The position numbers and the translations under genes are program-made. Below, one piece after another: positions 608 to 47,866 of a DNA stretch of 64,000 bases. How positions within the stretch are numbered: position 1 is the stretch's first letter; each line of letters starts with the position of its first letter. The notes beneath the pieces were generated by a model, which saw nothing but the letters and a program-made list of their open reading frames with translations, did not search any database and had not been told where the DNA came from. Source of the stretch: Marchantia polymorpha subsp. ruderalis (taxonomy: Eukaryota; Streptophyta; Marchantiopsida; Marchantiales; Marchantiaceae); assembly GCA_037833965.1 (NCBI GenBank), contig AP031355.1:17571501-17635500 (forward strand), read 5' to 3'.

Positions 608-3600
608 TCAGTTCAAATGCATCCGCTTCTTCATCTCCTCATAAACCACGTACGTGATACTAGCAGCAGGTACAACTTTCAATAAGTTTGGGAACAGCCC
701 TTTGTAGAAGCCCTTTAAGCCCTCTCTTCTGAAAGTTTTCTGAAAGACATCAATCATGCCCGTGTACTGCACCTCTGAGCCACGGTGTTGAGCTTGCATT
801 CTGGAGTAACATGACGAACAAGACGTAGGCAGAAGTCAACAATTTTGCAATAAACTCGGAAAGTCTAGTTTGAGAGATAGAGAACAGGCTGCTAGAGAAC
901 CACACCATAATGTCAACAACTAATGCAATCGAAAGACTTACAGCGTGTAAAATGAAGCAGAAGATACCCATCATTGCCTAACTAGAACCAAACATAACGC
1001 ACTAGAAGAGTTCCCACACCTTGTCCTCACAAGTTGCAAGGGATACACAAAGCTGGCACCTACGGCTCCAGAAACTGTACCGCAAGTCAGTTGTATCATG
1101 GGGCCTGGATCTGCATTTTCCCACATTCAACAAAAATGTGCCCACAATCACGCCTCATATCCACCACAAGGAGACGGGAAGCCTGATCACAACTGATACA
1201 GATGAAAGCAAAACACACAGAGGGAGACGTTTGATCGTGAAAATAGGCTAGGAGTTCAGCCTGAACAGCCCATTCTTGAGCTCAGCCTTGTCCAAAATTG
1301 ACCTCGGGTAAGGGATGGAGGGCAGAACATCTCCACGCAGCATTGTGAGAACATTGAGAAGAAGTTGAAAGAAAAGCATTATAGAAGTTAGGCTTCCACT
1401 TACCAGTGTCCTTTGGCAAGAATTGACGTGTCCAGTCTCTCAACGTTTCGTAAGCAGCCAAGTCGATGCCGGCATAAGGAACCATTCCTAACAAAGATGG
1501 AACGAGGCCCCGATAAAATGCACGGGGGCCTTCATGGATCCAAATGTCCCGCGATAGAGCTGCCAGTGTCGGAGGTTTACCAGCTTCACATGCGAAGGTT
1601 TGTAACCGGGTCTTAACCAGGTCCATCGGGTAAATTGCTGTTTGCGCTACTGCTCCAGCACAACCACCAGCCACGAGACGTCCTAAAGGTCCAATTTCAT
1701 TCCTATCTCCGCTTTCGTCGAAGCCAACGACGTAGTCCTTCATCATCTCAAAGGCGTAGAACTTGATTGCAGACTCTGGAGCTACTTTCAAAACGTTGAT
1801 ACCATTTCCGCGGAAGAAGGCAAGCACACCTCCTTGTTGATACATTTGCGACAATCCACCGATCACTCCCCTCTTTGTAGGAGTATCAATCTGGACCTGC
1901 AGGAGAACCTTAAGACGGTCTAAGGGGGCAGTAGCTGTTCTTGAAATGGCTCCTGCGACTCCTCCGGCGAGCAGATATTTATACGCATGCAAATATCTGC
2001 TGATGCCCTCTGGAATGACGGCTTGTTCGCCTATGTCAACAATGCACACCTTCTCCCAGTACTGGTAAATGCTCTTCATTGTGACTTCGTGGGGAAACAG
2101 AAGCAAAAAATCACGCCACTCTGCGAAAGATATGACTCCATTTCTGTCTTTGTCGATGTGATCCACAAAACACTGCAATTCGTCGTCACTCACATCGATC
2201 CCTGCAGGCAGAATGACTCAAGTTCAGGGTTTACGGATATGAATTATGAAAGATCTGGACAGCGTTCAGTAAAGAACTGAAAATGTTAGATCAAGAGCAA
2301 TGTATGTTAAAACTGGCTTTCGTATCTTGAACAGTTTCAGAAACTCAAGATTGGATGGAGCAATATTTGCTGATAAACACATAGCTCTGGAGTCCAGCAT
2401 TTTGACATTTCATTCTCAAAATAATTTGGAAATCTCTGATCATGGACACTTTGTTGAAAAATCTCAACTTCATTCCATGTGAAAATATCAAGATCGCCAT
2501 GGTTGAGTCATCAGGTCATGAAGAACGACGAGCTCCATTTAAATCGACATTTTATCGTTGAGTCTAAATCGAGCGTCATAGAGGATAATACGCATGTGAC
2601 AGAGTATAGAGCGAGGTGGTACAGATGAGCCCGAAAATATATAATTAACAGAAACTATTTTCCAAACCATGAAACTGTCATAAATGAGAGAATTACGAAC
2701 TCTAGGATGTACCGGACAATGAATTTTTTAATTTTTGTTGCCCCGTCTAGAAAAGAAATTTACTCCCTTCTCCGTCTATGCAATCAAGATCTAAAAGAAG
2801 AGCTAGCAAACTTGATTTTGGGTCGAAGGGCTCAAAATTCTGTAGGTGAATTATCCACTGTAAAAGAAATCAAACATCGTGAAGCTCCGAACAGTGAATG
2901 CTTCAAGCTCGTGTTACTGGTTAATCGCTCATGGTTCGTATAGGATTGGACTAATTCCTATAGAAGTCCTGACTCTTATATCGGCAGTGGCTAAATTAGA
3001 ACCAACTTTCACGGAAAGTTTGGCTTATCAGAATGGAAGGAAAAGCCCAGAGCATTTCTGGATTCACTGCATTCTTAGATTATGGCTGCCGCCGGGAATT
3101 CGTTCAAACTCTTGAATAGCTGCGATTTCCGACAAAAGGTAGGGCAGGATCCCATAAACTGACAAACAATACGAGCGGAGAACAAAGAACACAGTACCGG
3201 CTCGAAGCAAAGCTTCACCAAGCTCCTCCAGCTGCAGAACACCGTTGTGTTTCACGTCAATCTCCCGGAACATCTGATACAGTTCCAATTCCTTGGCATC
3301 CATATACTTTTTGAACTCGTCGAAGTCGACTTGACCATCACGGTTGGAATCGCAAACGTTGAGTAGATCAGCTGCATACTTGTACTGATAAGGTATAGAG
3401 AACGTCTGGAACCCATCCTTGATGAGCTTCTGATCCAAGTATCCACTCTTCTCCGTGTCAAAACGATCGAACAGGCTTCGGATCCTCTGGTCCCTCTGTC
3501 CCTTGCTCTCCTGCAGTGCCTGCTCGACGTCTCTTAAATCGGCCCTACTCGCCTCCGATGCTTCATAAGATTGCGACGCTGCTTCTCTACGTTGCGTTGA

Positions 3601-3666
3601 TTCGGAATTTGTTTCACCGCTGGTTTTGCTCGCTGTTTCACTGACCTCAGCTGCTGTACCTGTCAT
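608..3666 (-). CDS. Calcium-dependent mitochondrial ATP-Mg/Pi-type carrier (APC/SCaMC family), 4 exons
   Basis: Predicted 516-residue solute carrier of the mitochondrial inner membrane. The family exchanges ATP-Mg or ADP for phosphate under Ca2+ control. Exons on the minus strand are 3666-3198, 2201-1404, 1110-1020 and 800-608; all joins keep frame and use GT-AG. The N-terminal half has four EF-hand loops near residues 70-81, 106-117, 137-148 and 173-184. EF2 ([12 protein letters not shown]) and EF4 ([12 protein letters not shown]) are canonical; EF3 is degenerate. The C-terminal half has three carrier repeats with signatures PLDRLK (249), PMDLVK (348) and PLQLVR (446); Q in the third signature is, as I recall, usual for plant members. 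ATG 3666 is the only in-frame ATG upstream of EF1; the frame stays open further upstream without another ATG. The family call is secure; the exact transported substrate is inferred. Confidence 0.93.
2202..3197 (-). other. Intron 1 of the carrier gene
   Basis: 996-bp AT-rich intron. The donor is GCCG|GTACTG just below 3198 and the acceptor is CTGCAG|GG at 2201. The join is phase 1 and restores a continuous EF-hand region (LRAG then IDVSDDE). It falls between the third and fourth EF-hands. Short open frames inside it look like chance frames. Confidence 0.85.
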
Positions 3667-4378
3667 ATCTTCTTCGCTGCACGCGACCTCAACCTCCCCC
3701 GAAGAGAACAGATGCGCCCCGCACCCACTCTCGAAAAATTTCCAGACAATCCCCAAGCCGATCCCACCACCAAAACCAGACGAATCCGTCTCGCAGAAAC
3801 CAAAACTCTATACAATTCTGCTATGGATGCAGCCAGGACAGAGCCGCGGGGCTCGACCGCACCGCATCCACAAGGAACGCGACCGAATTCCGCTTGGATG
3901 TAGTCACAGCAACGACGAGTGCAGCAGCAGCAGGTGCCTGCGTATCACTCCATGCTCCTGCTAGGCCCGCCAAGCACCTGCACGCGCATCTTTCGAATCT
4001 GTCTTCTATCTGCGAACTCCCGTTGCCGATCGAAGACAGAGAGTTGTCCGGTCCCCCGTCTGCCCTATCACCTCCTCCCCCGGGTCCTTCGGCCAGCGAA
4101 TAAACAAAACATAATGCGTCAAAAAGTCTTCTCCATTCGCAAGCGGACAACGACACGAGCTCCCACTCTCGGCTCTCGCTGGAGGCGAATTTAGCGACCG
4201 CGCCCCATCGCAAGCAGCGCAATCGGCATCAGATAGACTGCCATACCCGAACACTCGTCCCCATTCAGGAAAATCCCGCGGAATAAGCGCTCCGAATGAT
4301 ATGATCGATCCACCCCCACCCTGTGACCCGCCCCGGATTCTCTCTCGATCGATCTCTCAAATCTATCGTTCTCGCTCT

Positions 4379-12600: not shown

Positions 12601-13759
12601 AGCTTTGAGGCAATTTAGAAATCAGGCCAGACTGCCGCCTCTTGGGCAGAAGGAGGAAACAGCAAAACGTCGAGACAAGAAAGAAAATGTTTGCACGCTT
12701 CGAATTGTAACGGTACGAATCGAGGAACCAAATTTACGCCGCCAGAGCATCCGATACTATCCTTTTAGACAGACATACATCGTCCGAGCCTCTATGTGAC
12801 TGGTGGACCTCAACAACCGGAAAAAGAACCATGTCCACTTCTGGAGACAGCTTGGGCGATTTTGAGGGTCGGGAACGTGAAATCGCACCTGCGCGATGAC
12901 ATTCGCTAGCACCTCCATTCCCAGGCAAGTTCCATGCACGGGGAAGTAGTCGCCTTTGTCGTTGGCCTCGATCGCCCACTGATCACAAAACGATACGTTC
13001 AGCTCCAATTTCTAATTCCTCAAACCACTGATTGAAAAATCAGACATCTTTTCAAGGCCAGTAAGAATCCTGAGACACTGAACACTTACGTCCAATAATA
13101 GCTTCACGGTGTCCAAAAAGGGTCCTCCATCCATGTTGGTATCCCCGCCGGGAAGAAGAAGTCCATTGATTACAGAAAATTTCTGCACAGCCAGCAAGCA
13201 AATCACAAGATGAGAAACCTGCAATTGAGCCTGATCATAGCACGAGTGTCACGTCCGACGGCCTCTGGAAGCGCCCCTACTTCTCCGATCTGAGTTGAGC
13301 AAAATCAAACCAGCGCAGTGGAGTGCGACGGTGTGGGTTATGTCACGTCGAGATTCTGTACTTTTTTTCAATGTCGAGAAGAGTAATTATGCACAGCAAG
13401 CGCGAAGCGATTGAGATGGGTGGACGGTCATCGATACGGACCCGGCGCAGCGACTCCACGGGCTCGTTGTGCAGGAGAGGAACGGCGCGTGCCCCACCGG
13501 ACTCGACGAATTTCACGTACGATGCAGCGATATAAGACATTCCAGGATGGTACGTGCCGAAGCCGCCGATCATGTCGTCCATTTCGCCCGTGAGAATTCC
13601 TATCAGCGGCTGCGTGGCGCGAACGACGCTGCCATCGTCGAAGCCCAGCCTTTCGCTCGGCATTCGAATTCGTCCACCAAAAACCGTGTCATGTAGAAAG
13701 ATCTGCGACACCAGAACCAGCAGCAACACTCTGCATGGGCTCACGGACGAGCGCTCCAT
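9612..13759 (-). CDS. GGH: Gamma-glutamyl hydrolase (folylpolyglutamate hydrolase), 9 exons
   Basis: Predicted 331-residue peptidase C26 enzyme that trims polyglutamate tails from folates; plant members act in the vacuole. Exons on the minus strand: 13759-13442, 13182-13090, 12978-12889, 12488-12397, 10739-10679, 10536-10447, 10303-10241, 9922-9834, 9711-9612. Every join keeps frame. Residues 1-28 form a hydrophobic signal peptide. Family landmarks in order: QPLIGILTGE; SYIAASYVKFVESGGARAVP; INGLLLPGGDTN; HGTCLGMEVL with the expected nucleophile Cys155; LTIMNHKMGIT with the expected catalytic His217; MFHPEKNMFEW; and SEARKSS near the C-terminus. Length and motif order match complete family members, so the gene looks intact. 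The first donor (CGG|GTCCGT) is weaker than the others. The largest intron (10740-12396) holds a perfect hairpin. Confidence 0.95.
10740..12396 (-). other. Intron 4 of gamma-glutamyl hydrolase
   Basis: 1,657-bp AT-rich intron between the exon ending at SFFK and the exon starting at VPEDVLEK; the codon for Trp198 is split across it. Apart from the hairpin at 11179-11222 it shows no recognisable feature. Short open frames inside it have no domain. Confidence 0.85.
11179..11222. repeat. Perfect inverted repeat, 21-bp arms, 2-bp spacer
   Basis: Left arm 11179-11199 and right arm 11202-11222 are exact reverse complements (core CAATCCCATTGGCTTGAC), separated by AA. It lies inside the large intron of the hydrolase gene. 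It would fold into a fully paired hairpin in the pre-mRNA. Confidence 0.9.
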
Positions 13760-13939
13760 CCTGTTCCTTCTCTACGAGCTTTTTCTTCTTCTTCTTCTTC
13801 TGGGCTCGCTCGTCTCGATCGAATTCGACAGTCCTTTTAATTATGATCGACGAGAGCTTCGACTGTCAGAGACGGCGCAAATCATCGGACGTGGCGCTCG
13901 ACAATCCTCGACAGCTCGAGCCCCGGCCAGAGCACTAGC

Positions 13940-26132: not shown

Positions 26133-29100
26133 TTAGCACTTCTCATTGTACTCGTGCCATAGTTGTTCTAGTCCATCAACATGAGCCAGTCCCACGACAG
26201 CGACGACCTTTCCCGGCAAGGATCGAAGTCTCTTCGCCATAATTTCGTTTCTGTCATCCACTAAAATCTGAAAAGTCCACAAAAGCCGAGCATTAGACTA
26301 CATTGAAATACCATATGGTCAATGACAAATTTCCTATTTCATGGTTTCTTTACCTATATTCCTGTCAATAATGTACAGCGTGAACCATTCGTTCTGTCAA
26401 TCTACAACAATTCCTATGAACCTCATCAACAACTTCCCACTGGTCTATATCTAACTACTGATCAGACTTGTTCCTTTCCCATAGGAATAACTTCCTTCAG
26501 CCAGAAAGAAAAACAACGTTACAAATATTACTCTTCTATGCTTACTCATCTACAGTTTGTGAACCCTCTTTCAGGCTGTGTAAGAATACCGCTCTGACAC
26601 GTTTCCCATCTCTACAGAGACTGCGCTCAGACGTCCGGTCTAAATTTACAAAGCGACTTAACAGTAGCTTTTCGTTCGTAACCTGTGGGCAGAAGAACAC
26701 AAATCCTGCACCTGACAGACGTAACATCTACACAACTTACTAGAAAACAGGATCGAATTTGGTGAACCAGTTTACAATGGTGGATTTACTCACTTTATGT
26801 ATATGTGGAGCTCCTTTCTTCATTTCCTCATTAAATCGCCTCACGACTCTTCGATCTCTGAATCGTTCAAATAATTCTGTCTTGGAAACATCCTGTCCCC
26901 TGCCAAGAGCTTTGGCCATGTCCGGCGGCATAGGCTGTCCGAACAACCTGAAGGCATCTTGCATTGACATGTTCAGGTCAAAGTCCCCCAAAAGCATAAG
27001 GGTTTTTTCAATTTCCTGATCTCCGAGCACAATTTCGGCTCCAACCCTTTTGCCTGCTTCCATGGCGACCTAGCAATCGAGATGAGTGACGAATGTCAGT
27101 AAAAGAGCAAAGTGACTTACAAGTATTCCAGATGAACGAGACGCACCTACCAGAATCTAAACAAAGTGTGAACGAAAAGATATAATTGGATGTGCTTGGA
27201 AAATTAGTTGCCAATACAGTAAATGATTCAAGCACGGTATTACGTACATTTGTGTAACGAAGGAGGTGCACTTTCACTTATCTCACATGATCGCACAGAA
27301 ATAACTCAAATGGTATATTCTTAAGCAGAACATCGGTTCTGCTAGGACGATTTAGATTATCTGAGCTTATATTATACCAAAGTTTACATACCTGTGGATG
27401 AGGTACGTGACTCTTTGGAAGGCGTACATGATGACAAGGAACCACAATAATCAAGATATTCCAGGTTCCATCTGGATGGAGTTCCCTCAATCGTCACAAT
27501 GAGTATTACCTACTATGAGCAACATAGTACCTGGAATTCTTGACCAGGATAGGAGCTGTGGTGAGGCTGCATTCTAGAAAGCGCGGCACCTAGCAGCCTC
27601 GCTCTGCCCTTCGTTAGCTTTTCGATAATGTGTTCGAGTAAGGAGATCTTCTTAATAGTTTTTCTCAGTTCTAGGCTATCGTATCGTTGTCTACACAGCT
27701 CCACCAGCACGTAGTTTGGCCGCACTTTTTCAATAATCTGCAGGCGAAATTACATAATCAGCTACTTCGACTCGCATCCGACCGGGTAAGTACCTCCAGC
27801 AACAAATCCGACTGCTTAAATCAAAATTTCACTGCTTTAGAGCTGTATGAAGTAGTAATATTAACAACATTCATCAAACATGCCCTTAGGACCATCTTAA
27901 TAAGCTCTTGGGTACTAAGTGTAAAACGCAGGGGCTGATACACTCTCTCTGGAGCTTGAAACTTTGAAAGAATTTTAGAGACTCGGCCGATCACTTTGTG
28001 ACCTCACACTCCTTGACTTCGAGGAGACTTTATCAGCACGAATGAGCTTCATGCCACGGGACTGTAAACGCGCACAGGATAAAGACATTCGGAGGAGTGT
28101 CGGAACATGGCATCCACATGACAACCCAAATTGGCATCAAGACTGAGTCAACGCAAGCTTAAGTGACAGAATGAATGGCGTACCTGCTGCACTTCTTTAA
28201 CGCTTTTCCTCGAAACATGGGAAGTGCCGACTATGTACACTTCGGCCCCATTCGAATAGTTCTTGAGCTGCACGACGCCCTCGTCCGTTTGATGAAATTT
28301 GCGAGCCATCTTCGCATCGGCTGCACTGGCAGAAGAAGTCGGCGACTCGACGTCGTCGTCGTCCCTTTCTCCCACCTTCTGCCCTCTGTCCTCTCGAATC
28401 GTGCGCCTGTCTTCGACTTCTCCTCCTCCTTCCCTCTCCTCTCCGTTCAAAAGAACACCTCCAAAATCGCTCTTTCCACCAGCCCTGTCGCTATCTTCTG
28501 CACAATCGTAGAGCTGGTAGACATTCACGCCGGCCGAAGGCTTGGGCCAGTTCGAGAGCTCGTAGAACTTGCCTTCGGAAGTAGGAATACTACTACTACT
28601 ACCACTCTCGGGCATATCGAAGCCTCCCTGTCGTCTCGCCTTCTTGATTCGTTCCGGATCGTCTTCAGCTCTTGCTTCCGAAGTCGATCGCTTGCGCGGA
28701 CCGATGGAAGCTCCCGGTCTCCAATTCTTCTTGGCGAAGAGAAAGTGGCCTACGGCGCACGATTGCAATGGCGTGAACCGCTTGCTCTGCTGCTGCTGCT
28801 GCCGCCGATGCCGAAGCCGATGCTCACACTGCGGCACATCTCGACGGGCCACGCGCGACGACCTCCTCGACCGAGCTCCCCGCACCGCCCTCCATTCGCC
28901 ACTGCGATCGCCGGAGTGCAGACTCCTGTGAGTGCGAGCCAGTATGTGACCCGTCTGCGGCTCAACAGGGCATCGGGGCCTGGCATTGCCAAAGACGGCA
29001 TTTCGGGGATGCTGCGGCGACTTCACCGCCCTCTCGGAGGCCAGACGAAATCCGTCCTGCGGAGGGCAGCATCGCTTCTCCCACTCCCTCTTGAGGTGCC

Positions 29101-29443
29101 GGCTGCTGTGATTGAGAACCTGGAGTTGGCGAACTCCGCGGGGCTGCGGCTTGCTGAACCACCGGAGCCTCGCGCTCGCATTGCAAGCGGCATATCGGCC
29201 GGAAGACGAGGAGGCAAAGCGGCAGGACTTGGAGATCGAGGCAGAAGCGTAGGACGAGGTCGAGGCCGAAGTCGAGGGGGCGGAGGCGCAAGGCGAGCGA
29301 GCTCGCGCTGCAGCGTTTGTCCGGTCTAGGGTTTTCGATCCGAGCCCGTACGAGGGTGTCGGTAAGGTGGGGCAATTGAACGAGATGAAACACTTGTCTA
29401 TGGGCAAAACGGACGTCGAAACGCCTGTCACCGTCGTCGTCAT
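26133..29443 (-). CDS. TraB-domain (PrgY/TRABD-like) protein, 5 exons
   Basis: Predicted 637-residue member of the TraB/PrgY family, whose fold is related to Tiki-type metalloproteases. Plant members include proteins placed at ER-mitochondria contacts; the role of this one is unknown. Exons on the minus strand: 29443-28184, 27737-27531, 27156-27121, 27069-26794, 26267-26133. All joins are phase 0. Family landmarks: EVYIVGTSHVS with the GxxH motif at 406-409; RPNYVLVELCRQR (Glu433); VGAEIVLGDQE (516-520); and VVAVVGLAHVDGLEQLW (His622). Residues 1-390 are Ser/Arg-rich, low complexity and GC-rich. The first 90 resemble an organelle transit peptide, but this is inference. Exon 3 is only 36 nt. 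Domain call is secure; the C-terminal end is less so. Confidence 0.85.
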
Positions 29444-30733
29444 GAGTGATCCTTTCTAGCGACTCCTAACTGACAGCTGATTCCACTGCCCGGCTGACCA
29501 CCACGTCGATTATGCAATTTCTCCCGCAGCTTGACTTTAAAACCACCTTCATCCCTTGCGCACCCTCGTCACCCCGCAGTAACAAGACCGACACCTACCG
29601 GTGTCAGTGGTCGGGGCCATGCTCCATTCTCGGCCCTGCTCCTGTTCCTGCTCCTTTTCCCGAGCTCGCAACCCCGTCTGCGCGCGAGCAGACAGGCAGT
29701 CGTCAATGAATAGGGTTGCGGAGCTGGGAATCGTTCATGGAGCCCAACATTCATCCATTCCCCATTCACGCAATCATGAAAGTACCGGATCGATGCGATG
29801 GCCGACGGAAGCGCGCACCCACTCGGGGCTCCTGCTGCGACTGCGACATGGACCGAACGACCCTAGCCTAGGTGAATCTTGCTTGAGAAATGCAGCACCG
29901 AGATGCGCTTTATCTGTTTCTCGTGATGAATCTCGCAAAAGTACATCATGACATAGCGTGAAGAACGAGGAACCTTCCGCGTCCCGGTCCCGCGCTGTAG
30001 ATTCGTTCTTTTCACCGCTCGATCGACGCAGAGCCGAGATCCGTGACCCCGTTCGCCCTCGCTCTACTCGTTCTCCACTACTGTATCCCTCTCCGTCTGT
30101 ATCTCGACCTCGTACATGCATTCACATTGCCTTTGTTCTCTTCTTCGAATCTGCGATTCGTCTCATGTCAGACCCGAGGATTGGACGGAACTGCGCGACT
30201 TTTGCAGAACGAAGACTCGTAACCTTAGGTCCTCGGGGAGTAGCTCGGGTTTGACCACTGCCCGATTACGAGAAGCTTCATCTGCTACGTTGACCCAGAG
30301 CTTCAAGGCCCCAGCAGAGTCACTGTTCGAGAAATGCATTTACGAGGCGGACGATGCCACGATTTATACCAATCCCCGCATCGCCGAAAATACCCTCCAC
30401 CGTCGGGAGGGGCTTCCGTGGCCAGCGACATCACACCCAAAAAAAGAATGCAGCGATGCCGAGCGGCCCTGCGATCTTCATCACCCCGACGAGGGAGTCT
30501 TCGACACTCCACATGCTATTGCGAGGCTAAAACCAAATTCTCTCCACATTTCTTGTGCGAAGTCCAAATCGATCGGGCCATTTGCGTCTTGATGGGAAAT
30601 ACTTTGGCGAGAAAATTTCGGGTGCACCGGCCCATTACACTCCACGCTATGATCGATTTGTTTCTTCTTTGATCGAGATCTATAACCCCACAATTTATCT
30701 TTCTTTGATCTACAAATGAAGCTGAAGCTCATG

Positions 30734-31174: not shown

Positions 31175-34100
31175 ATCAAGGAACCCTGAGGTAAATGGTA
31201 AATGGAGGCTTTTCACTCCATGCTTTCTATTCAGTTCAAGTCAGACAGTTCTGTCGACCACGTGGATGGAGTTCGATATTTCATTGAGTGGACGAGACGC
31301 GGTTTATTAGATTTCTCCTCGAGAAAATTACTTGATGGAACCTGCAAAACGCAAAACATGTCATTCCACCGTCCACGAGTTATATAGGAACTGGATGTCC
31401 AGAGCTCCTGGAACGTTGAGAAATCTTTTGAATGAGAGTTCAAAACTTCAAAAAGTATCAACTAGCCACTCACAAACACTAATTCTTGGGAATCGAAACG
31501 CTGAGAAATATCTTGAGTGACATTTCAAAACTTATCAACGAGTTCGTTTTGAGAATCGAAACGAATTTTGCGGACGAGTTCACAATTTTTGTAAATGCAA
31601 CAAGTTTTCCCAAGAACGAGTGGAGAAAAAGAGCGTGACATGAGTTTCATGACAATTTTATTATCAGATTGATTATTCTAAATTGCATTCCATAACTATA
31701 AATCATTTTAACATTATCGCGGAAACAATTCAGGTTGGTTGTTCTGAATAGCATTTCATTACATTGTCATAATATCTTCTCACAAAAACACTTCATACTC
31801 ATGGCCAAAATATCTACCACGAATATTTTGGCAATACCTCCTCTCCATCAACTGTTGGGTTACAAGGATACGTATTGGAACTAAAAGGCGTTGTGGTAGG
31901 TACTATAGGCCAAAATGAATAGTCTTAGGTCCCAATAAGTGTTTTGTTATGATATGGTAACATCAAATATAAAAAAAAATATCTCTATTCATAATTTGAC
32001 CGCAATTGATTGATAGTGGATGAGAATAAATCTTTTATTGTCAATAAAGATTTTCATTTCATGTTCATGTGGAAAGAGTTCATGATTGGGTTTATTGTAT
32101 GATTCCCAAATAAGCGATTTTAAAACACGCGGTGTGTAAAGTGTATTCTTTTCAAGTTGTCCTACTTGGAAACCTGATCTCATACAAATCAAGGACAGCA
32201 CATTGTATGCACCGCGATCCGATTATGCATTCCCATTAAAAATGGAAATGGACATCCATTCCACTTTTTATGGAACATCCAGAGTTCTAGGATTCTGATT
32301 ATTTAGTTTTAGATAAAGATAAAGACTTTAGATAAAGACTTTACTAAAGACTTTACTCGCGTCTGAGGAGCAAAATTTCGAGATTAATGTTTTATATTCT
32401 TCGATCATCTGTATGTGTTGACTTGCAAGAATATTCCTCAAACTGATGATGACTTTAAAATTAAAAAAAGTTCTTTACAATGAGAGCAACGAAAATACAT
32501 CGGTGTGTTACTGGAGACACTGGAGGATCCATCAAACAAACCAAGTACGCAGGTTTGATGAAGGGAGTAGAAACTGGCAACGTGTGAAGCTGGCCATGGC
32601 CTTTCCACATGCGTCCATCGTACTCCTAATCTCAAAGCTTGATCTTCACAGAAAGGATTCAACATGTGAAGGTTGTGACGTGCGCCACCAATAAAGATCG
32701 ATTCTGGACAACTCATCCATGCAGGAACAAGTTGTGCGTGAGAATTAATAGCAGGATTGTGACCGCGCTTGATTCAGGTCCGATTGCTCCACATCAATCA
32801 ATGAATCACTCCTCACATTTTGTACAGTACATGTTGTATCGTCTATTTAAGGGGTCCGGCAATATCTTCAGGTTTCCAAACTGAAAACGCCATCACGATG
32901 TGCAAGAATTCACCGATCCATCTTCCCCTGAATCATTGGGTGATATTCTCTCCTTCGAATTACAATCCCTTTACACTCTCAGTTCATCCATGAATATAGA
33001 CATTAACACTGCAAAGCTCCATATGGATGATGGTGGTTTTTACTAATAGCAGTACATTATGTTGTATGTGTGAAGAGTAAAAGATTTTTGTTAAGAAAGA
33101 GTTGTGTTTTTTATGAAAAATTCAAGAATTTTTGGTGTAAGTAAACGCTCTGATGATCACCATACGAAGCATTCTACATGAAGAGCGTCAATCAATCATA
33201 ATACTATAATATTTCTCAATTCAATAATAGAATGTATAACCTACATATACGTTTGAAACAATCATGGTGGATTTTATTGTACATAACATGAAATGTTTAC
33301 AAGAGCAAGTGATCCTGATTTCTTCTCATAAATAACTTGCACACCTTGTTTCTTACACGTCTGCCCTCCACAACAAATTGTCAAATTTTACAACCAAGTG
33401 GATAAACTCATGTATTATGTAACCAGTATCCGAAGAGTTAATCATACAACATGTATTTTTGTTTCAATTTCACATTCATCCACTAAATGGTAATTCATTG
33501 TATATTGCGCAACCCAAAAATACATGCACATGGCATGTACTTATAGTTGAAAGTGTAGATAATAGAAAGATCCATTAGATAGATCAATATGATAGATTGC
33601 AACCCATAATCACCATGGGAAACTTGATTCACTAAATATTGAAGATTTGGACCAGTACACGCCAAGTCCATCTACCAACTGGTAATGATGGTAGAAGAAT
33701 TGCTCGATCACGACAAATCTAAATTTGCGGAGAAACTAAAGCACTTGATTGCTGGATACTATTTTACTTACTCACTCCACGTCAAGTTCACAGAACCAGC
33801 GCAAGCCACGTCACCAAGCTGGAGAGAAATCGCCATGCAGGTGGATTAGAAACTGAGCACAAACAATGATGAGGTCTATCGATTTTGCTTGATTATTTGG
33901 CTCCACATTATCAATTATCAGTCATATATAATTACAAAAATCACCTAAATATTATCCAATGTAATCAAATCCATAATCTGCTAAATATGTTCAAAACTTT
34001 ATCAATGAAGAGGCTTGATATATGACTCATCTAAAAATAATAAAATTATACTATCGTTGCAACATGAAAAACTTGACTATTTTGGTTGGAGATGAAATAC

Positions 34101-36611
34101 TCCATTGGAAAAACATAAAAAAAATCCCTCTAAACTATGTGTTGATTTTCCACTCTAGACCTTGGAATTATACGATGCCACCCTGAAATTCTGCGATTAC
34201 ATGCATTCTGCGATTATTTAATATTAATTTTTTTTCAATCACCAACTGAGAATCCAGTTGACCGGATAGTAAGTCGGTTGCAATGATGTGTAGCATCGTC
34301 ATCAGGACCACCACATTGCACCACATATGAGACAAATGAACTTAATAATATGAAGTGATACATTAGCATATTGATTTTATAATCTTCTTAAAGAGTAGTA
34401 AAATAGTTGAGCTTAAGTATATATGATGTTTTCAATTTCTATTTCTCTTTTCACTCAAAGGTTTCATTTTGTACTTTTTCCTTCATCTTATGTTTGGACA
34501 TTCAATGATTTGCAAGACAATGGATTCTGCATATTTCTGCTCCGCATCAAGTTTGGGAAAGAATAGAGCAGAAATAAGTAGTTAAATGACTTTAAAGACA
34601 AACTTGTGATTGTTTTCTTCTCAAACTTACAAAAAAACAACAAAATCTATCTGCTATAAAACACAATAAATATTTTAAACATGTTCTCTTATCTTACATC
34701 ACATAACATAGTTTTTTAATAATTTCATTAGTACAAAACTCGAAACATTTCTAAGCTTGAAAAGAATACTTTGTGCACATATTTATCCAAACATACACAA
34801 CTGTTTACATAAAGACAAAATATATATTATAAATTAGTGTAATTACAACATTAGCATAATATAACTTTCATTTTGTTCATAAAGACATTAGATTCATCAA
34901 TATTAGCATTTATTAAAACACATTCATTTTTGTGGATTCAAAGATTTCTGTTGTTGATGCTAGTAACTATTCAAAATTAGATCTTCATTGTTAATTTTAA
35001 GTATTACATTCACATCAATTTTTATTGTGAGATTTTTTCCTTGAATCCTATTTTATTGAAATTATTTTTAAAAAGTATAGTTTTAATGCACTCAGACCTT
35101 AAAATATTTAAAATTCTTGTACATTTCATAAAAAAATCTCATTTAAACTCAACTGAATTCATTGAATTCAATTAAAAAACATGAAACATGTCATTTTTAT
35201 GCAATTTAAGTCCAAAAATAATTTTGATTTTGAACTTGTTCAGTTAATCATGAATTTGACATTAAATTTTTTTATTTAATTTCAAATTATTCATATCAAG
35301 AAAGATATTTTGATCTTAAGACTTTCTTGATTTTGCACAAAAAAATTGATTTAAATCATATTTTTGAAACAAATTTGAAATTTTTTCATGCAGTTTAATG
35401 ATCATGCAATAAATAAATAAAAATTATCATGCTATATATAATATAATCATCAAAATAGAATTATAAAAGATATATTGAACTCTTTAATTTAAAACATAAC
35501 ATTAAAAATACATATATTAAGTAGTAACACGATGTTGGAATATTTTTATTTGTACCATTTATTGAAAAGTGATATGATTTTAAACGTAAAAATTAACTTT
35601 AATAACATTTCCATTCACTATCATTAGACTTTGTTCACTCTATGTACTTTAAGATGACAAGTTATTATATTTATTTGTTTCGGTTATTTACATATGCAAG
35701 AATTATATACCAATAGAATAGTGAATAAAATGCAATAATACTATATATGATTTGTTGCATATCTAATTAAGATTTGATAGTCATCCATGATGGATTAGAA
35801 AAACATGTTGTTGAAAATAGATAAAAAATGTTTTATGCATCATATAAATTACTGATATAACTAAATTGTTACTAGATTTTCATAAAAGTATATTTTTGAA
35901 TCTAGAATATTAGATTAACATTGTTAGATATATGATGCTTGTGACATAATTTGAAAAGATACAAATATTTCTTTGTTTTTATAATGTACACACATTTAGA
36001 TACTCAAATGAAATTTGTAGATTTTCCATGTAGTTTATCTTCTTGATTGTGGCAATGATAATATAATCTTAGTAGTCTTTGACAAATCAAAAAAATAATC
36101 ATTTTTACATTTGTTAGCTCAAATCTTGGGTAGAAGAAAGATCTACTCCATGTATTCATAAAGTTTTTGCAATAATTTCATCATTAAAAATAATTTCACC
36201 TTGATTGAAAATTGAAGATTTACATTATAATTTTTTATCTACACAAGAATTTGCAAAGTGGTTTCTTAACAATTCTTACTTGAAAGGAAATAACTCCAAA
36301 ATTCAACCCTTATGAGATGTTATTTGATTGCAAGAAGAGCATAGTAATCCTCATTTTTTTCTCTATTCATCACCAAACCTCTCTATTTATAGAAAGCATT
36401 TTGTATGTTCGGCATTATTATAAAATAAGGATTGTCATCAAAGCAAAATACGGAATATATATAGTTTAGTAAAAATCTATTATTTCAAAAAAAAAAACTT
36501 CTGAATTTGATGTAAATGTAATAAAGCAATCTTTCGGTAAAGTACGCATATTGACCCTAGATAGATTTTGTACTGAACACAAACAGGTATTTTTCACGGA
36601 CTGTCATGCTT
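31175..36611. other. AT-rich intergenic DNA
   Basis: 5.4 kb of mostly very AT-rich sequence, with no open frame over 60 codons between about 32.9 and 36.9 kb. One coding-like patch (33640-33849) is listed separately. Nothing else is recognised. Confidence 0.55.
33640..33849 (+). pseudogene. Coding-like fragment without a start codon
   Basis: A stop-free plus-strand reading ending at TAG 33847-33849 includes KSIYQLVMMVEELLDHDKSK, FAEKLKHLIAGYYFTYSLHV and PSWREIAMQVD. Base composition is much less AT-rich than the flanks. There is no upstream ATG in frame. I do not recognise the family. It looks like a detached exon or pseudogene scrap with protein-like composition. Confidence 0.4.
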
Positions 36612-37248: not shown

Positions 37249-39001
37249 CTCCCTCCGTCCCAAAATTATTGTCCAATTCACGGTTTTTTTGCATTCCATT
37301 TTTATTGTCTTATTGTTATTACACTATGTTTAGACCATTTAGACGCTCTCAAACGCTGTTGTACAATGTCATTGAACAGGCAATGTTATCTAGGGTGAAG
37401 GCCCTATCGCGCCAGCTTCTCCTTGCCCATATGGGGAAGTTTGTAGTCGTTTACGCCGCCGCATTTTATGACTTCGACCAAGCACTGCTTTAGAGATAGG
37501 AACAAGTTTTTCAGCTTGTCGAGGCCCATTGCATTAAAGGAATTCACGACAACTTTGATAAGCTCATCAATATTGTTCGGAGCCTGCTGATGCTGAAGTG
37601 ATTGGATCGATCAGAAGAATCCGAGATCGAGAACGTTCATATCATGAATGTTCGGTGGCTGACAGATTAAACAGATTTGGAATTCGTCATTGTCTTCTTC
37701 TCGGATCAGATCTATGTTATCGGATTTCGGGTGAGGCTTGGCGTTGTCCTGCTGGACGAAGATTATAATGGGACCTGATTCGACGCTACGTGCTGGTCAC
37801 CTTGGCCACGATTCCCGAATTGACGGAAGACATGCTCAATCAAGAATCGCTTTGCGACTTCTTTGTTCACAGATTCAATCGGTTTCGTTTCAATTGTTCC
37901 GGCCGAACGATTCTTGGAGGAACTCTGCGCTGCCGCCTTGTAGTCCAATGGAAAAATCCTTATCTTTCCTATAAACCATTGGTTCTTGACGAGATCGAAA
38001 CGCGGTAACGCCATTGCGGCCATAAACATCACTTTCAAGACAAAACGCTTGCTCTTTTCCGTTCGATGTGGCACTTTGTCATCAGCGGCGAGATAGAATG
38101 TCTCACATTCCTCGGTCAAATTGAACCATTTCTCATCGATATGAACAAGATATCATTGGCGGTAGAAATGAGGATCGCCATCCGTGAGTGTAGATTCATC
38201 GATCTGATCAATAGCATATGCCAGCAGGGATGTCTTATTCGCATCGGTAAGATTCGGCTTCAGTGCATTCATATGACACTTGATAATCCACTCGGTGATG
38301 CGATTATGGAGCGTCGACTTTGATATTCTGATGGCGCAAGTTGCTGAGCAAATATTCTTTCGCAAACGTTTGTCGATCGCCTTGTACTTCTTCATGTCGA
38401 TAGAGACTTTTGAACGTCATTTCTTGCCAATGATTCGCGATGATACGTCGGCGAACACATTGCCACTAGCCAGCGACTCCCTATCACGAGTCCATACACG
38501 AATAATTGTACGCGCACTGATCCCAAATTCAGCCATTGCATTCTAGGCACCATACTGCAGCTTTCCATTGTCAGAGCGTCCCAACAGGAATTCATACACT
38601 GCTCGGCACTGTACATCGGTCAGATTCTTCTGCTTCTGAGTCACGGACTTCCCCTCACAAAACGCCTCAACGGCACCGCCTTGCATTCATCCAAAAGAGG
38701 TTCATTCGAGGGCGAACCTTGATCGACATTAAGTTGATAAACTCCACTAACGATACCTTGATCAGTGGACGCAGGAACGATAATTGTTTATCCACCGGTA
38801 CTTTGGCAAATGACACTCAATTACGATAGTGGTTTTGGCGCCAAAACTTTCGCTTGCAGAGGTCACCGAAGTTCAAAGTTTTGCGAACCTAAAAACACTT
38901 CAAATTTACATTTTCCCTTCGCAAAAAGCTAAAAAAAGATTATTTGAGCTTATTCCCGGTGTTTTAACAAAAATTGGACAATAATTTTGGGACGGAGGGA
39001 G
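37249..39001 (-). mobile_element. Mariner-like (Tc1/mariner) DNA transposon with perfect TIRs
   Basis: 1,753 bp flanked by TA on both sides (37247-37248 and 39002-39003). The two ends are identical inverted repeats of 30 bp starting CTCCCTCCGTCCCAAAATTA, the signature of plant mariner/Stowaway elements. The minus strand encodes a broken transposase. TA target duplications and intact ends indicate a complete insertion with decayed coding capacity. Confidence 0.93.
37330..38650 (-). pseudogene. Mariner-like transposase pseudogene
   Basis: Read on the minus strand. The N-terminal helix-turn-helix part includes RAVYEFLL and ISKSTLHNRI. The catalytic part includes HIDEKWF (first Asp at 38135-38137), FVQQDNAKPH (second Asp at 37746-37748) and PPNIHDMNVLDLGFF (third Asp at 37641-37643). 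All three acidic residues survive. A stop plus frame shift separates HFYRQ (38153) from HIDEKWF, and further stops occur, so no full protein is made. Longest clean block is 38119-37763. In this copy 34 residues separate the second and third Asp. Confidence 0.88.
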
Positions 39002-42396: not shown

Positions 42397-45300
42397 CTAC
42401 TTCACATGAATGCCCTTGCTGGGAAGAACCCACGCCTTCTTGGAGTCCTTGGAATTGGAGTCGTTATCGTAAGCAACAGTGACCCTCGGTTGCTTTTGAT
42501 CGACCTTAGGTTGTACGTCCGACCCTCCTGAACCTTCATCCTCCTCTTCTACCTCGTCATCTTCATAATCGTCGTCCTCGTCCATCCCATAATCTTCGTC
42601 GGAGTCTGTAAACTGCCATTCGTCCAAGTTGACGGCTGGACCCTTGCCGTGCACACGCAGTTGAGCATAAGCCTCTGCCACAGAATCGTCGTTCTCCTTG
42701 TCATCCTCTTCTTTTCTTACCCTCAAACCCTCGCTACTGCTACCAGGAACGTAGACTCTCTCATCGTCTCCTCTCCTTAGTTCTTCGCTACTACCGCCAA
42801 GAACATAGACTCTCTCATGATCCGCTTCCCATTCGTCTCTGTTCTCAGAAATATACACTCTCTTATCTTCTTCATTATCCTCACTTTCTGACTCTCCGTT
42901 ACCCTCAATATCTCCATTGTACTCTTCGTCTTCCGTTTTCACCCTGTCTTCACAAACGGCAGTATCGGCATCGGTGAGCTTTTCAGACTCTTCTATTCTC
43001 TCGTCCCTAAAGTTGAGAGAAATCATATCACCTTCCACTTCAACAAAGCTTTCCCCCGCTGTCACATCAGTAACAACCGTTTCTGCACGAGTTTCACACT
43101 GCGCTTGTTCCTCTACCACCGCGGCTTTCTCAGCTATTTCCTCAGGAATGTCAATCTTCAGCACTGTCTCCTCCATTTCAGGTTGGATGACAATGGTATC
43201 CTGGGCAGGGACCTCCTCCATCGTTTCACTAGAACTTCGTTTAATTTCCAGATCAACTAGATGCGGGACCGCTGGCTCGTTGAAGGCTCCATGCTTCTCT
43301 GCATCCGTAACTGGCTTCTCAGCAATATCATTAGTCGATCCTTCATCAGACTCGGAATCTGACTGATGATCTTCCTCGCTAGATTTATCTTCCTTGAGTG
43401 CGGCTTTCTCGACGAACTCTTTGTACAAGGCTGCTACCCTGTCTGGCACAGACTGGGTATCTCCTCGCAAAGGATCATACTGAATCATAAGCTCTGGTAT
43501 GCCCAAGAGGGTTGCATCCTGATGAACAGGATCTTGCACCTCGCCCGCCCAGGCGTAAACTTCACAATGAGGGAACCGTTTTTCCAACAGATCACTCATG
43601 TCCCTAAGGAGGGACGAGACGGGAAACAGAGGCTTGCATTTTGATGCTTCGTACCCATGGCTTAGAAGAGTAGCAGCAAGAGACATTCCTGCAAAGTCCG
43701 CGAACCATCCTTCAAGGAGATTAGCCCAAACACCACCCGGGTTCTTGAGCAAAGCCCAGAACAGAACCTGTCTCAATCCCGCTCTCGTTGCAGAGAGGAT
43801 TCGCATGTTCTTCGGTGTTTTGGAAAGCCGCGCGTATCTCTCTGTCAATGACTCCTTACACACGATATCTGGCATATCGCGTAAGAGCTTTTTTACTTTT
43901 GTTCTTGAACCTAGCTCCTGTCCAGCTCGATCCTTGTAGATCTTGTTCAGCTCACTCCAAGCCACTCCTTTCTCGATGTATTCCGGAGAGGCGAGTATGA
44001 GTCGAATTTCATGCTTGAATCTTAGGTTATCAGGAGTGGGTGTATGTGCGTCCCGAAGACCTCCATTCTCGAAGCACTCTACGCGTGCTCGTACAAGACC
44101 CACCGTGATCGGTACTTGGTCCACGATCAAGGATTCCGCATCCCCCTGCTTTGAGCCGTTATCTGAACCGTCATCTGCACCACCATCCTCTTCATCTACA
44201 GCTAGCATCATCAGGTTCACGAAGAGCTCATCAAAACTGCCGAGGTCCGTCTCCTCCATCTTACAATCTACTAAGTCAAGCAAAGGGTACTTCTCACTTA
44301 TGAGTTTAATGACCAAAGAGCCATCCTCGTTTGATCCCAGACGAACGAAATCCATCATATCATCCAGAAGAAGCCGAATCTCCTCAAAGTCAGCCAACTG
44401 AAACTTCGAGATCAGAAATCTCTCCAACTTTCCCGGTTCAGAGCAGCTGTACCCGTTGTTCTGGAGTACCTCCCAAAGCTTTCCATCTTGGGACTCCTGA
44501 AGGCGATGGACAAAATCACTTGGCTCCAGCCCATCTGGGTATACCTTTGACAACACGTGATAGACAGCAGACCGAAGACCCGTTCGAACAGTGTTCAAAA
44601 TCCTCTTGTTTGCTTCAAGGGGGACGAGGAACACCCAGTCAGGCCTCGGCTCTTGGAACAAGAATATGTCGTGCCACGAACGGGCAAGCTCCAGAACCGA
44701 ACTGAATCCTAGCAACTGCAAATCTATACTGGCCTTGAATGTAGCTTCATAAAGCTCACAGAGATGGCTCACTTCTACGCCGTGTCCGGAATTGTGAAAA
44801 GCCAGCAGAATTCGTATGCGAAGTCTAGCTTGCAAAATTTCATCCTCCAGCGAATGAGCTGGCCCAGGGGTCACATCGTATCTTCTGATTTCATTCTTCA
44901 GACCACGCATGGTAAGATTACTTCCCACCTTTTGTTTCTTTGACAACTTCAGCTTGTCTGGTGTCAATTCCAACTGAGGTTCGATAACAATTGGTGCGTT
45001 TGTTAATTCTGCAAGAGGAACGCATGAAACAAGTCAGCGACCAGCAAAGTGTACATCACACTGGAAGCTCCCTCACAGTAGCATGCATTTATGCCACTAG
45101 CTTTATACTCGTTTATAACTTTACGGCTAAAACTGCAAACTGCAAAACTGGAAGGCTGAAGACGACATCATAAACTAGTGCGCTTAGTAAATATCTCTGA
45201 CTTCTTGATCATTAGATATAAACAGAACTAAGGATGACTGGAAATGCTTCCAGGATTTAAGACTCCTTACTCAAATCAAAAGCATGCTTGACATAAACCG

Positions 45301-47866
45301 TTGGGTACATCATTGCGTGCATATGTGCACTGCTCGAACATGCAACTATTAACACAGACCACTAACCACAGGAGTCTATTCATCAAATTCGGCATCGAGC
45401 GTAATTTACTTCTAGTAAAACCGGGAAAAAAAGTGTATATTTTCATGAGGTTTTGATTAACAGTAAACAAGCAAAATACCAGCTTTTGCTGCGATAAACA
45501 ATATAAAACAGACCTGGAAGGTTGGAAAGAAAGCTATTATAACGGAAAAGGCAGAAATTCGAATGCTTGAAAGGAGTCCAAGGACCTCTTCCAAGTGCTA
45601 AAAGAAGGATTCTCTATCGCGACACCGATGGGCAGCAATAAATGAAAATGGCAGTCCAAAATTGTCTGACAAATATACAGTGATAGCGTTTAGTAGCAAG
45701 GAAAAGGTAAATAACATAGATGGTAATTGCGATTTAATCATGAAGGTATAGCTGTGAAAGTAGTAAAAGTAGTCTCGAGAGATCATCCCAAGACATTGAA
45801 GGACAACAATTCGTTACAGGAACCCAGCACATATCAACAGATGGAGGACTTTTGTTACCTGACGTGGCTTGCGGCAAATTTTCCAGATCAGTTGACTGTT
45901 TTTTATCCGGCGTGTAAATTATATTCCTCATTGAAGGAGAACTCTTAATGAGCAGCCCGTCGCTTAGAGCAGGATCTTCTGCGCCAGCACAAAGACTCGC
46001 TCCTCTTTTGGGCCCATCCTTTTCACAGGCCACGATATCAGGCATGTCTTTCACTAGACACTCTACGGTGGGAGTATCATACCCATGCTCAGTTAGTATG
46101 TCAACCAACGGCGCCCCAAGCAGCTCTGAACATCTTTCTTCAAGCTGTTCAAATGACATCTTCTCGGACGATTCCTTCAGCACATCATGCACGATTCGCC
46201 GTAGGCCTGACCTGATCCCAGCAACTGCTCGTCGATTCTTAGCAGAATCAACTAGAATCAGCTCTCCCTCCTTTTCCAATCGCGACCTCTGTACAACGTG
46301 AGGCATGGCGCGGCAAAGTCTGGCAGCAGAGCTGAAGCCGGTCTCTTCCAAATCTCTTCCAAACTTCTTCTTGTATACACCGGAGAACGCTGAAAGCTTC
46401 CTGTCTTTGCCTTCGAAGAGGGGCGAAACGAGGACAACTCTCACTTGATATTGCAGCTTGGCCCTGGTTTCGGCACTTAGCTCCAAAAATGCATCGTAGT
46501 CCTCATCCTCGTCATGATCGTCTTCATCCTGTACCACCAAGCCACTGACCGACAGTTCCTTCTCATTGTCAGAGTAGAGTTCATTCTCATACTTCTTGAT
46601 CTTCAATCCCGATCCACTGGGGCTTGGCATATCCATGTAGGCCTCTCCGACCGAGACTCTGGCGTATGTAGTGAACTCATTTTCCCTCTCCTCTGCGTGA
46701 TCCCTCTCGCTTCTGGCTGCAGATTTTAGGGAATATTTTGTTGATTTTCGTTCCGACTCCTTTCGGTACCCCGCTTCACTGCCTGCCACAGAAATTCTTG
46801 CGTAGGAAGAGAAGGCTTTCTCCGCATCCCTGCCTTGCTCGTATTCGCTCCCGGCAACAGACACTCTTGCATATCTTTCGGTCTCCCTACCGTGGTCACT
46901 ACCTGCGACGGAAACTTTGGCATATGCTGGGAGCTCCCTGTCGGTGTCTCGCCCATGATCACTGCCTGCAATGGAGACTCGGGCCAACCTGTCCGCATAG
47001 TTTTGATCCGGTTCGCTACCAGCCACCGATATTCTTGCGAATCCGGAAAAACTCTCTCGATCCATCTCCTTGCCCTCGCTTCCGTGAACGGAGACTCGGG
47101 CGTTCGTATCTCCATAGTTGAAATCAGCTTCACTGCCATGGACAGAAACTCTAGCATATCCGGCATCCCTGTCAATCTCACTGCCCGCTACAGAAACTCT
47201 TGCGTACGAGCCATCATCTTTGTCGTTGTCGTTGCCTGCCACGGAGATTCTCGCGTAGGGTGAAAAGTCCCGGTCAATATACTTTCGGTGTTCGGCTTCA
47301 GTGGTGTCCGGAGCAGAAATCCTTGCATAGGGTGAAAACTTCCTCTCTATAGTTTTACCATGATCAAACTCCACGCCGTCTACAGCAATTTTGGCGTATC
47401 CTGAAAATCCTCCATCTACGTCCTCAAAACCTCCATCGGATTCATAATCGAGCTCGTCCTCGTCCTCGTCCTCGTCTCCCTGCTCGAACCCCGAGTCATC
47501 CGAGTATTCCTCGAGGCCCTCGTCTCCACTGCCAAACGCACCGTCCTCGTCGACTTCCTCCTCTTCGTCGTCATCGTCGGGGTCAGCAATCTTCACTCGA
47601 GGGCCGCTCGCAATCCTCAGGGAAGCATACGAGTCCACGATGGAGCCTTTCTCATCATCATCAACCTTGGCAGTGGGGGCAATGCTGACACTCCTCTCAC
47701 TCTTGGGTGCAGAACGCACGCTCCGATCATCCCTGTCTGTGTCGGCCGCTGAAACCACTGATTTCTTGGTCATTTCCTTGCTCCTTGGATTCAGACCAGT
47801 ACCCCCTTTCCCTGTTTCTATCATCTTATGCTCACCTGCCAGGTAGTTTGACGACACATCAGTCAT
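42397..47866 (-). CDS. Multi-LOTUS (OST-HTH-like) repeat protein, 2 exons, 1,539 aa
   Basis: Exons 47866-45859 and 45008-42397, joined CGTCAG|GTAAC to CTCTTGCAG|AATTAAC in phase 1; the split codon reads Glu670 and both sides stay open. Start is ATG 47866, with an in-frame stop just upstream. Order: Ser/acidic N-terminus; 13 repeats around YAR[IV]SVAG (residues about 157-406); then three pairs of winged-helix modules at about 469-615, 730-896 and 998-1156; then an acidic, Glu/Asp/Ser-rich tail. The first module of each pair fits the LOTUS/OST-HTH pattern, for example YKKKFGRDLEETGFSSAARL then MPHVV. The second is a diverged relative (LVKDMPDIV, LLRDM). LOTUS domains elsewhere bind RNA, G-quadruplexes or RNA helicases. 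No NYN, RNase or Tudor domain is visible. Function unknown; RNA-related scaffolding is inference. Confidence 0.82.
45009..45858 (-). other. Intron of the LOTUS-repeat gene
   Basis: 850-bp AT-rich intron with a strong donor (CAG|GTAAC) and a pyrimidine-rich acceptor (GCGTTCCTCTTGCAG). If retained, exon 1 would read on for 47 more codons and stop at 45734, giving a short form with only the first module pair. Confidence 0.8.
46640..47400 (-). repeat. In-gene repeat encoding YAR[IV]SVAG units
   Basis: About 13 imperfect units of 42-81 nt, encoding variants of YAR-[IV]-SVAGSE followed by a charged spacer (DHGRETER, EIDRDAG, EYEQGRDAEK and others). The outermost units are the most diverged (YAKIAVDG, YSLKSAARSE, YARVSVGEA). 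It codes for residues about 157-406 of the LOTUS-repeat protein. Confidence 0.85.

What the first reader, a model, noticed from the sequence alone, without database searches (positions are those of the whole stretch)
42397..47866. Plant protein with six LOTUS-like modules in three pairs and no catalytic partner domain
Seen: two open frames join in phase across a clean GT-AG intron to give 1,539 residues. The product has three tandem pairs of winged-helix modules between an acidic repeat N-terminus and an acidic tail. Known: LOTUS/OST-HTH domains usually occur as one or two copies with NYN nuclease, Tudor or RNA-binding partners. Inference: this is an unusual multi-LOTUS scaffold, possibly for RNA or helicase binding, and perhaps lineage-restricted.
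Basis: partly seen in the sequence, partly recalled or inferred. Interest (0 to 1): 0.88.

Follow-up and report, generated by a model that had tools for sequence, protein, structure and literature searches.

The report
Six-LOTUS scaffold protein of land plants
A liverwort gene encodes a large protein built from three back-to-back pairs of a small RNA-related domain (LOTUS) with no recognisable enzyme part; the same six-domain core is kept in mosses, lycophytes and conifers, so it is an old plant protein family rather than a local oddity, and its function is still to be tested.

Summary
Two exons (47866-45859, 45008-42397, minus strand) join across an 850-bp GT-AG phase-1 intron to give 1,539 residues, letter-identical to MPTK1_5g13470 of Marchantia polymorpha; the gene is already annotated ('hypothetical', 'HTH OST-type'). 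The core is three tandem copies of one two-module unit. First modules are LOTUS/OST-HTH by sequence. Second modules are invisible to Pfam; A2 has LOTUS domains as best structural matches, B2 and C2 follow only by profile similarity. Pfam finds no nuclease, Tudor or RRM in 20 homologs. 'Lineage-restricted' is wrong for the core: homologs occur in liverworts, mosses, lycophytes and conifers; it fits only the N-terminal YARVSVAGSE repeats, found in the liverwort proteins. New here: conserved acidic '(E/D)DPxxxD' extensions directly after the second modules of pairs A and C, not B. Most likely a non-catalytic mRNP scaffold that binds structured RNA with pairs A and C and docks proteins through pair B and the extensions; this mechanism is inferred. 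New variant of a known kind, moderate interest.

The parts
45859..47866 (-). exon 1 (coding part): residues 1-669 and first base of codon 670; acidic N-terminus, YARVSVAGSE-type repeats, LOTUS pair A
   Evidence: identity to P0001
45009..45858 (-). 850-bp GT-AG phase-1 intron; exon 1 frame meets a stop in it at 45734-45736
42397..45008 (-). exon 2 to the stop codon: LOTUS pairs B and C, acidic tail
46649..47329 (-). residues 180-406: 11 copies of a YA[RK][VI]SVAGS[ED]-type repeat, spaced 16-24 residues except the last (46), in acidic spacers; seen in the five liverwort homologs
46232..46465 (-). module A1 (residues 468-545), LOTUS
   Evidence: Pfam OST-HTH E 1.6e-3, below the curated cutoff; profile match to C1 E 4e-15
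45983..46231 (-). module A2 (residues 546-628), LOTUS-like by structure, not by Pfam
45932..45982 (-). extension A (residues 629-645), AEDP[AST][LI][ST]DG; 8 of 17 columns near-invariant over 20 homologs
44608..44847 (-). module B1 (residues 724-803), LOTUS
44293..44607 (-). module B2 (residues 804-908), LOTUS-like by profile similarity to A2 only; pair B has negative net charge in 20 of 20 homologs
   Evidence: A2-B2 E 1.5e-11; charge
43801..44031 (-). module C1 (residues 996-1072), LOTUS
   Evidence: Oskar LOTUS best PDB profile match E 0.0021, then Tejas and TDRD5; OST-HTH in 5 of 10 members, best E 3.3e-4
43543..43800 (-). module C2 (residues 1073-1158), LOTUS-like by profile similarity to A2 only
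   Evidence: A2-C2 E 1.5e-14; no OST-HTH hit
43456..43542 (-). extension C (residues 1159-1187), DPxxxDAxLL...IQYDP, resembling extension A; 9 of 29 columns near-invariant
   Evidence: tail A vs tail C E 8e-5, probability 61, no shuffled control run for this comparison
42397..43455 (-). acidic C-terminal tail (residues 1188-1539, net charge -68); 0 of 352 columns near-invariant over 20 homologs

Best explanation
The gene encodes a non-catalytic, multivalent scaffold made of three LOTUS pairs on flexible, mostly acidic linkers. Shown: triplication of a two-module unit, LOTUS identity of the first modules and of A2, a conserved N-x-R...G-L-R junction in the pairs, a core kept from liverworts to conifers, and two conserved acidic extensions after A2 and C2. 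Inferred: pairs A and C (net basic here) each sit on structured RNA with both winged helices, much as the LOTUS-like ED1 and ED2 of Egalitarian grip adjacent minor grooves; pair B (acidic) and the extensions dock protein partners such as mRNA-decay or DEAD-box factors; the acidic arms, with repeated YARVSV stickers in liverworts, help it concentrate in RNP granules. In use it would resemble Drosophila MARF1: an RNA-binding platform that recruits an effector instead of cutting the RNA itself.
For: Pfam and PDB profile hits to LOTUS for A1, B1, C1; structural matches of A2 and B1 to LOTUS domains; pair-level internal homology; in 20 homologs Pfam (E up to 0.1) gives OST-HTH in 19 and otherwise four families in one member each, best E 0.013; near-invariant columns: A 45 of 165, extension A 8 of 17, B 44 of 185, C 42 of 163, extension C 9 of 29, against 1 of 463 and 0 of 352 in the N- and C-terminal arms and 0 of 78 and 5 of 87 in the linkers; net charge A +3, B -10, C +8 in this protein, B negative in 20 of 20. 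Literature: Egl ED1/ED2 bind adjacent dsRNA minor grooves (PMC13186709, passages); Drosophila MARF1 binds CCR4-NOT (PMC6168497, passages); the human MARF1 LOTUS domain binds G-rich RNA (as reported in PMC10226599, passages).
Against: No RNA binding, localisation or partner was measured. Oskar's eLOTUS showed no detectable RNA binding in the hands of Jeske et al. (PMC5458760), so LOTUS does not guarantee RNA binding. The match of pair A to the two Egl modules has rmsd about 13 A, so single modules agree but not the pair geometry. The B+C model is poor (mean pLDDT 63.4, the five models from 63.4 down to 43.0), and its top Foldseek row is a replication factor chain with rmsd 31.7, not LOTUS. No Foldseek match reached E 0.001. 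Pair C charge ranges from -11 to +10 and pair A from -3 to +12 among homologs, so the basic-pair argument is uneven.
Confidence: 0.5

Rival explanations
1. It is a protein-only hub: the LOTUS pairs and the EDPxxxD extensions dock a helicase or decay factor (an eLOTUS-like role), with no direct RNA contact.
For: Extension A starts at residue 629, just after the winged helix; the Oskar LOTUS matches of the pair A model end at model residue 178-179 (window 627-628) in four entries and at 182 in Vasa-bound 5nt7, so it lies where Oskar's Vasa-binding extension follows. Extensions A and C have the highest share of near-invariant columns of any region. Pair B is acidic in 20 of 20.
Against: Sequence similarity of these extensions to eLOTUS alpha-5 was not tested; plants are said to lack a Vasa ortholog and the eLOTUS extension (PMC5458760); pair B has no such extension.
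Confidence: 0.25
2. It is an mRNA-decay factor descended from the MARF1/DNE1 line that lost its NYN nuclease and multiplied its LOTUS pair.
For: Arabidopsis DNE1 has NYN plus two LOTUS domains (PMC10226599, passages); each unit here is also a LOTUS pair; fly MARF1 is described as RRM plus six LOTUS.
Against: No protein named DNE1 or MARF1 came up in three searches at E up to 1e-3, but this is weak: the length window of those searches and the word filter could exclude them. Pfam shows no NYN in 20 homologs.
Confidence: 0.15
3. The modules are DNA-binding winged helices (chromatin or replication factor) that only resemble LOTUS.
For: Foldseek also lists ORC, Cdt1 and ArsR/Fur-type winged helices, and for the B+C model an ORC-Cdc6-Cdt1 complex chain ranks first (E 0.055, probability 0.47, rmsd 31.7) ahead of TDRD5.
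Against: In the second-look alignment TDRD5 LOTUS stands above non-LOTUS chains: 10.9 against 8.7 for A2 and 13.0 against 8.9 for B1; lower LOTUS rows such as MARF1 (9.1) are tied with non-LOTUS ones. The C1 profile finds Oskar, Tejas and TDRD5.
Confidence: 0.06

Closest known systems
Drosophila MARF1 (one RRM and six LOTUS, binds CCR4-NOT)
   Same: six tandem LOTUS modules, no nuclease mentioned in the paper's main text (PMC6168497, passages)
   Different: the plant protein has no RRM by Pfam, its modules are a triplicated two-type pair, and it has long acidic arms; the two proteins were not aligned here
Arabidopsis DNE1 (NYN nuclease with two LOTUS)
   Same: plant LOTUS pair (PMC10226599, passages)
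   Different: no NYN domain here by Pfam; three pairs; orthology neither found nor properly tested
Egalitarian ED1-ED2 (Drosophila)
   Different: Egl has three EDs, an exonuclease-homology domain and XAD and binds BicD (PMC13186709, passages); pair A does not superpose as a pair (rmsd about 13 A)
Oskar / TDRD5 / TDRD7 / Tejas eLOTUS
   Same: best structural and PDB-profile matches of modules A2, B1 and C1; a C-terminal extension follows the winged helix
   Different: no Tudor match here; the extension motif is EDPxxxD and its similarity to eLOTUS alpha-5 is untested

Membership tests
LOTUS/OST-HTH domain (PF12872) | Pfam model above curated cutoff in the protein | tested here: met
   40.1 bits against 23.8 for P0001; 19 of 20 homologs match at E up to 0.1
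LOTUS/OST-HTH domain (PF12872) | first modules A1, B1, C1 match LOTUS by sequence | tested here: met
   B1 above cutoff, A1 below it, the window's own C1 alone without a hit; C1 as a family: 5 of 10 members in Pfam and Oskar LOTUS in the PDB at E 0.0021
LOTUS/OST-HTH domain (PF12872) | second modules A2, B2, C2 match LOTUS by sequence | tested here: not met
   no OST-HTH hit in 10 of 10 members of A2 and of C2 nor for the window's B2; A2 and C2 profiles find no LOTUS chain in the PDB at E up to 10
LOTUS/OST-HTH domain (PF12872) | second modules have the LOTUS fold | tested here: inconclusive
MARF1/DNE1 family | NYN endonuclease domain | tested here: not met
   no NYN match in 20 homologs at E up to 0.1
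MARF1/DNE1 family | RRM (fly MARF1) | tested here: not met
   no RRM match in 20 homologs at E up to 0.1
TDRD5/TDRD7 | Tudor domain | tested here: not met
   no Tudor match in 20 homologs at E up to 0.1
eLOTUS | C-terminal alpha-5 extension that binds Vasa | tested here: inconclusive
   a conserved extension follows A2 and C2; its similarity to alpha-5 and any binding were not tested
Egalitarian | EDs followed by an exonuclease-homology domain | tested here: not met
   no exonuclease match in 20 homologs at E up to 0.1
Egalitarian | ED1-ED2 pair geometry | tested here: inconclusive
   pair A aligned over both Egl modules with rmsd about 13 A; relative placement in a predicted model is uncertain (pTM 0.61)

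The most novel reading that the evidence does not exclude
A previously undescribed land-plant family of LOTUS-only hexamodular RNP scaffolds, in which each unit is a fused heterodimer of two LOTUS classes and two units carry a plant-specific EDPxxxD extension that works like the animal eLOTUS helix to capture a helicase or decay factor; the family was lost in flowering plants, and liverworts added a sticker-repeat arm for granule formation.
Probability: 0.2. Interest if true: 0.75.

Novelty: new variant of a known kind. Interest (0 to 1): 0.5.

Why it matters
LOTUS function is known mainly from animal germ granules; among plant LOTUS proteins that I met, DNE1 joins it to a nuclease (passages) and AtC3H18 is a zinc-finger protein (search listing only). 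A conserved LOTUS-only protein in a genetically easy plant (Marchantia, with a homolog in Physcomitrium) would let one ask what the domains do by themselves. The second-module class also suggests that Pfam undercounts LOTUS-like domains in plants.

Tried and rejected
Chance ORFs: rejected, the protein is identical to a database entry and its core is conserved from liverworts to conifers. Lineage restriction of the core: rejected. The whole-core profile against the PDB gave one row, an HslU chain (E 0.0044), which also leads the A2 profile's list (E 0.014); read as chance, since it is no LOTUS and lies above the usual cutoff. The C2 profile found no LOTUS chain, and B1 as a single sequence found nothing. 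tRNA and Rfam scans of the window: nothing at the default thresholds.

So absence is not shown. MARF1's LOTUS ranked below TDRD5 in the fold comparisons; that order says nothing about descent.

Papers: no hit for 'Mp5g13470'; 'LOTUS domain' with 'land plants' gave one review, seen in the listing only; 'LOTUS domain', 'OST-HTH' and 'plant' gave 13 listed papers, of which I saw passages of PMC5458760, PMC6168497 and PMC10226599 and only the listing of the rest; at least two of OST-HTH, Marchantia, Physcomitr and bryophyte gave 2,954 papers, 15 shown, none of those 15 holding OST-HTH; 'OST-HTH', 'Arabidopsis' and 'domain architecture' gave four. 'Undescribed' means not found in those searches of an open-licence library.
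Full report
What is there. On the minus strand, exon 1 (47866-45859) and exon 2 (45008-42397) join across an 850-bp GT-AG phase-1 intron to give 1,539 residues. Exon 1's frame runs into a stop inside the intron at 45734-45736 and exon 2's frame is closed upstream at 45034-45036. The translation is identical over its whole length to P0001, which sources name MPTK1_5g13470 of Marchantia polymorpha subsp. ruderalis, hypothetical protein, HTH OST-type. The window is therefore Marchantia, chromosome 5 by the locus name (inferred), and the gene model is not new.

Module identity. Pfam gives OST-HTH for the whole protein at 40.1 bits against a cutoff of 23.8. Tested one by one, B1 (E 1.4e-5) and A1 (E 1.6e-3, below cutoff) hit, the other four of six do not. 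For C1, 5 of 10 aligned members hit OST-HTH at E up to 10, best 3.3e-4, and the C1 profile finds Oskar (five rows), Tejas and TDRD5 as the first seven of ten PDB matches, E 0.0021 to 0.77. A2 and C2 have no OST-HTH hit in 10 of 10 members each and no LOTUS chain in the PDB by profile; for B2 only the window's own module was scanned.

Internal repeat. Profile comparison shows first modules alike (A1-C1 E 4e-15, A1-B1 4e-6, B1-C1 6e-7) and second modules alike (A2-C2 1.5e-14, A2-B2 1.5e-11, B2-C2 6e-7), with one clear cross-class link, A2-C1 (1.6e-7); the other eight cross-class comparisons give E 9.8e-4 or worse. Whole pairs give A-C 5e-28, A-B 1.7e-15, B-C 4e-13; the best of 150 column-shuffled module controls scored 18.9, against 33.7 to 76.6 for like-with-like modules. 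So this is a triplicated two-module unit. A signature N-x-R-h-h-x(2-4)-x-x-G-[LIYF]-R marks the junction of the two modules: by one pattern three pairs match in 14 of 20 homologs and two pairs in the other 6.

Conservation. Twenty homologs were collected: liverworts (two Marchantia, two Riccia, Calypogeia), mosses (Ceratodon, Physcomitrium), lycophytes (Diphasiastrum, Selaginella), conifers (Taxus, Cryptomeria) and nine without an organism name. In a tree of the core, liverworts, mosses and conifers each group together, with four unnamed proteins beside the conifers and five among the mosses; the two lycophytes do not form a clade (support 0.474). Near-invariant columns lie in the modules and two extensions; the arms have 1 of 463 and 0 of 352, the linkers 0 of 78 and 5 of 87. 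The aligned N-terminal segment is acidic in 20 of 20 (net -68 to -5); the C-terminal one is not always (net -83 to +2). The YARVSVAGSE-type repeats number 11, 11, 9, 9 and 6 in the five liverwort proteins by one pattern; of the other 15, one has a single match.

Extensions. Directly after A2 comes AEDP[AST][LI][ST]DG (a pattern of that kind matches 18 of 20) and after C2 a DPxxxDAxLL element (a pattern that allows G for D, S for A and S for the last L matches 20 of 20). The two tails resemble each other (E 8e-5, probability 61, 25 columns that include the end of the wing; no shuffled control for this one), whereas tail B resembles neither. Oskar LOTUS matches end at model residue 178 or 179 in four entries and 182 in Vasa-bound 5nt7, that is window residue 627 to 631; extension A begins at 629. 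It thus lies where eLOTUS carries its Vasa-binding extension; this is position only, the sequences were not compared.

Partners. Across 20 homologs Pfam at E up to 0.1 finds OST-HTH in 19, and DUF7516, NRF, Sec39 and an NrS1 head domain in one member each, best E 0.013. There is no NYN, Tudor, RRM, zinc-finger or ankyrin match.

Known or new. The OST-HTH paper of 2010 mentions plant fusions to ankyrin repeats and, among several groups including plants, to ubiquitin-network domains; in the passages seen, multiple tandem repeats are named for vertebrate TDRD5, TDRD7 and Limkain b1 (PMC2848206, passages). No paper on this gene was found. The domain is known; the LOTUS-only hexamodular land-plant architecture, the Pfam-invisible second class and the extensions are what I take to be new.

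Noticed in passing
1282-2217 (-) and 3064-3807 (-): Mitochondrial carrier (Mito_carr E 8e-50) with a weak EF-hand, and a nearby EF-hand ORF on the same strand: probably exons of one calcium-dependent carrier gene of the SCaMC/APC type (gene name recalled).
   Followed up: partly
28148-29455 (-): End of a long ORF reads VVQLKNYSNGAEVYIVGTSHVS, which looks like the start of a TraB/PrgY-type domain (recalled); Pfam gave no hit for the ORF.
   Followed up: partly
37763-38152 (-): ORF with HIDEKWFN looks like a mariner-like transposase fragment (recalled motif); Pfam gave no hit.
   Followed up: partly
13343-13771 (-): ORF with PLIGILTG and YIAASYVKFVESGGARAVP resembles a first exon of a gamma-glutamyl hydrolase (recalled); Pfam gave no hit.
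   Followed up: partly
34001-36000: AT-rich stretch, GC 0.243 against 0.32-0.58 in the other 31 two-kb bins.
   Followed up: no
P0013-P0019 (moss-clade homologs, outside the window): The region before the core ranges from 34 to 378 residues by pattern, so gene models or real N-terminal arms vary.
   Followed up: no
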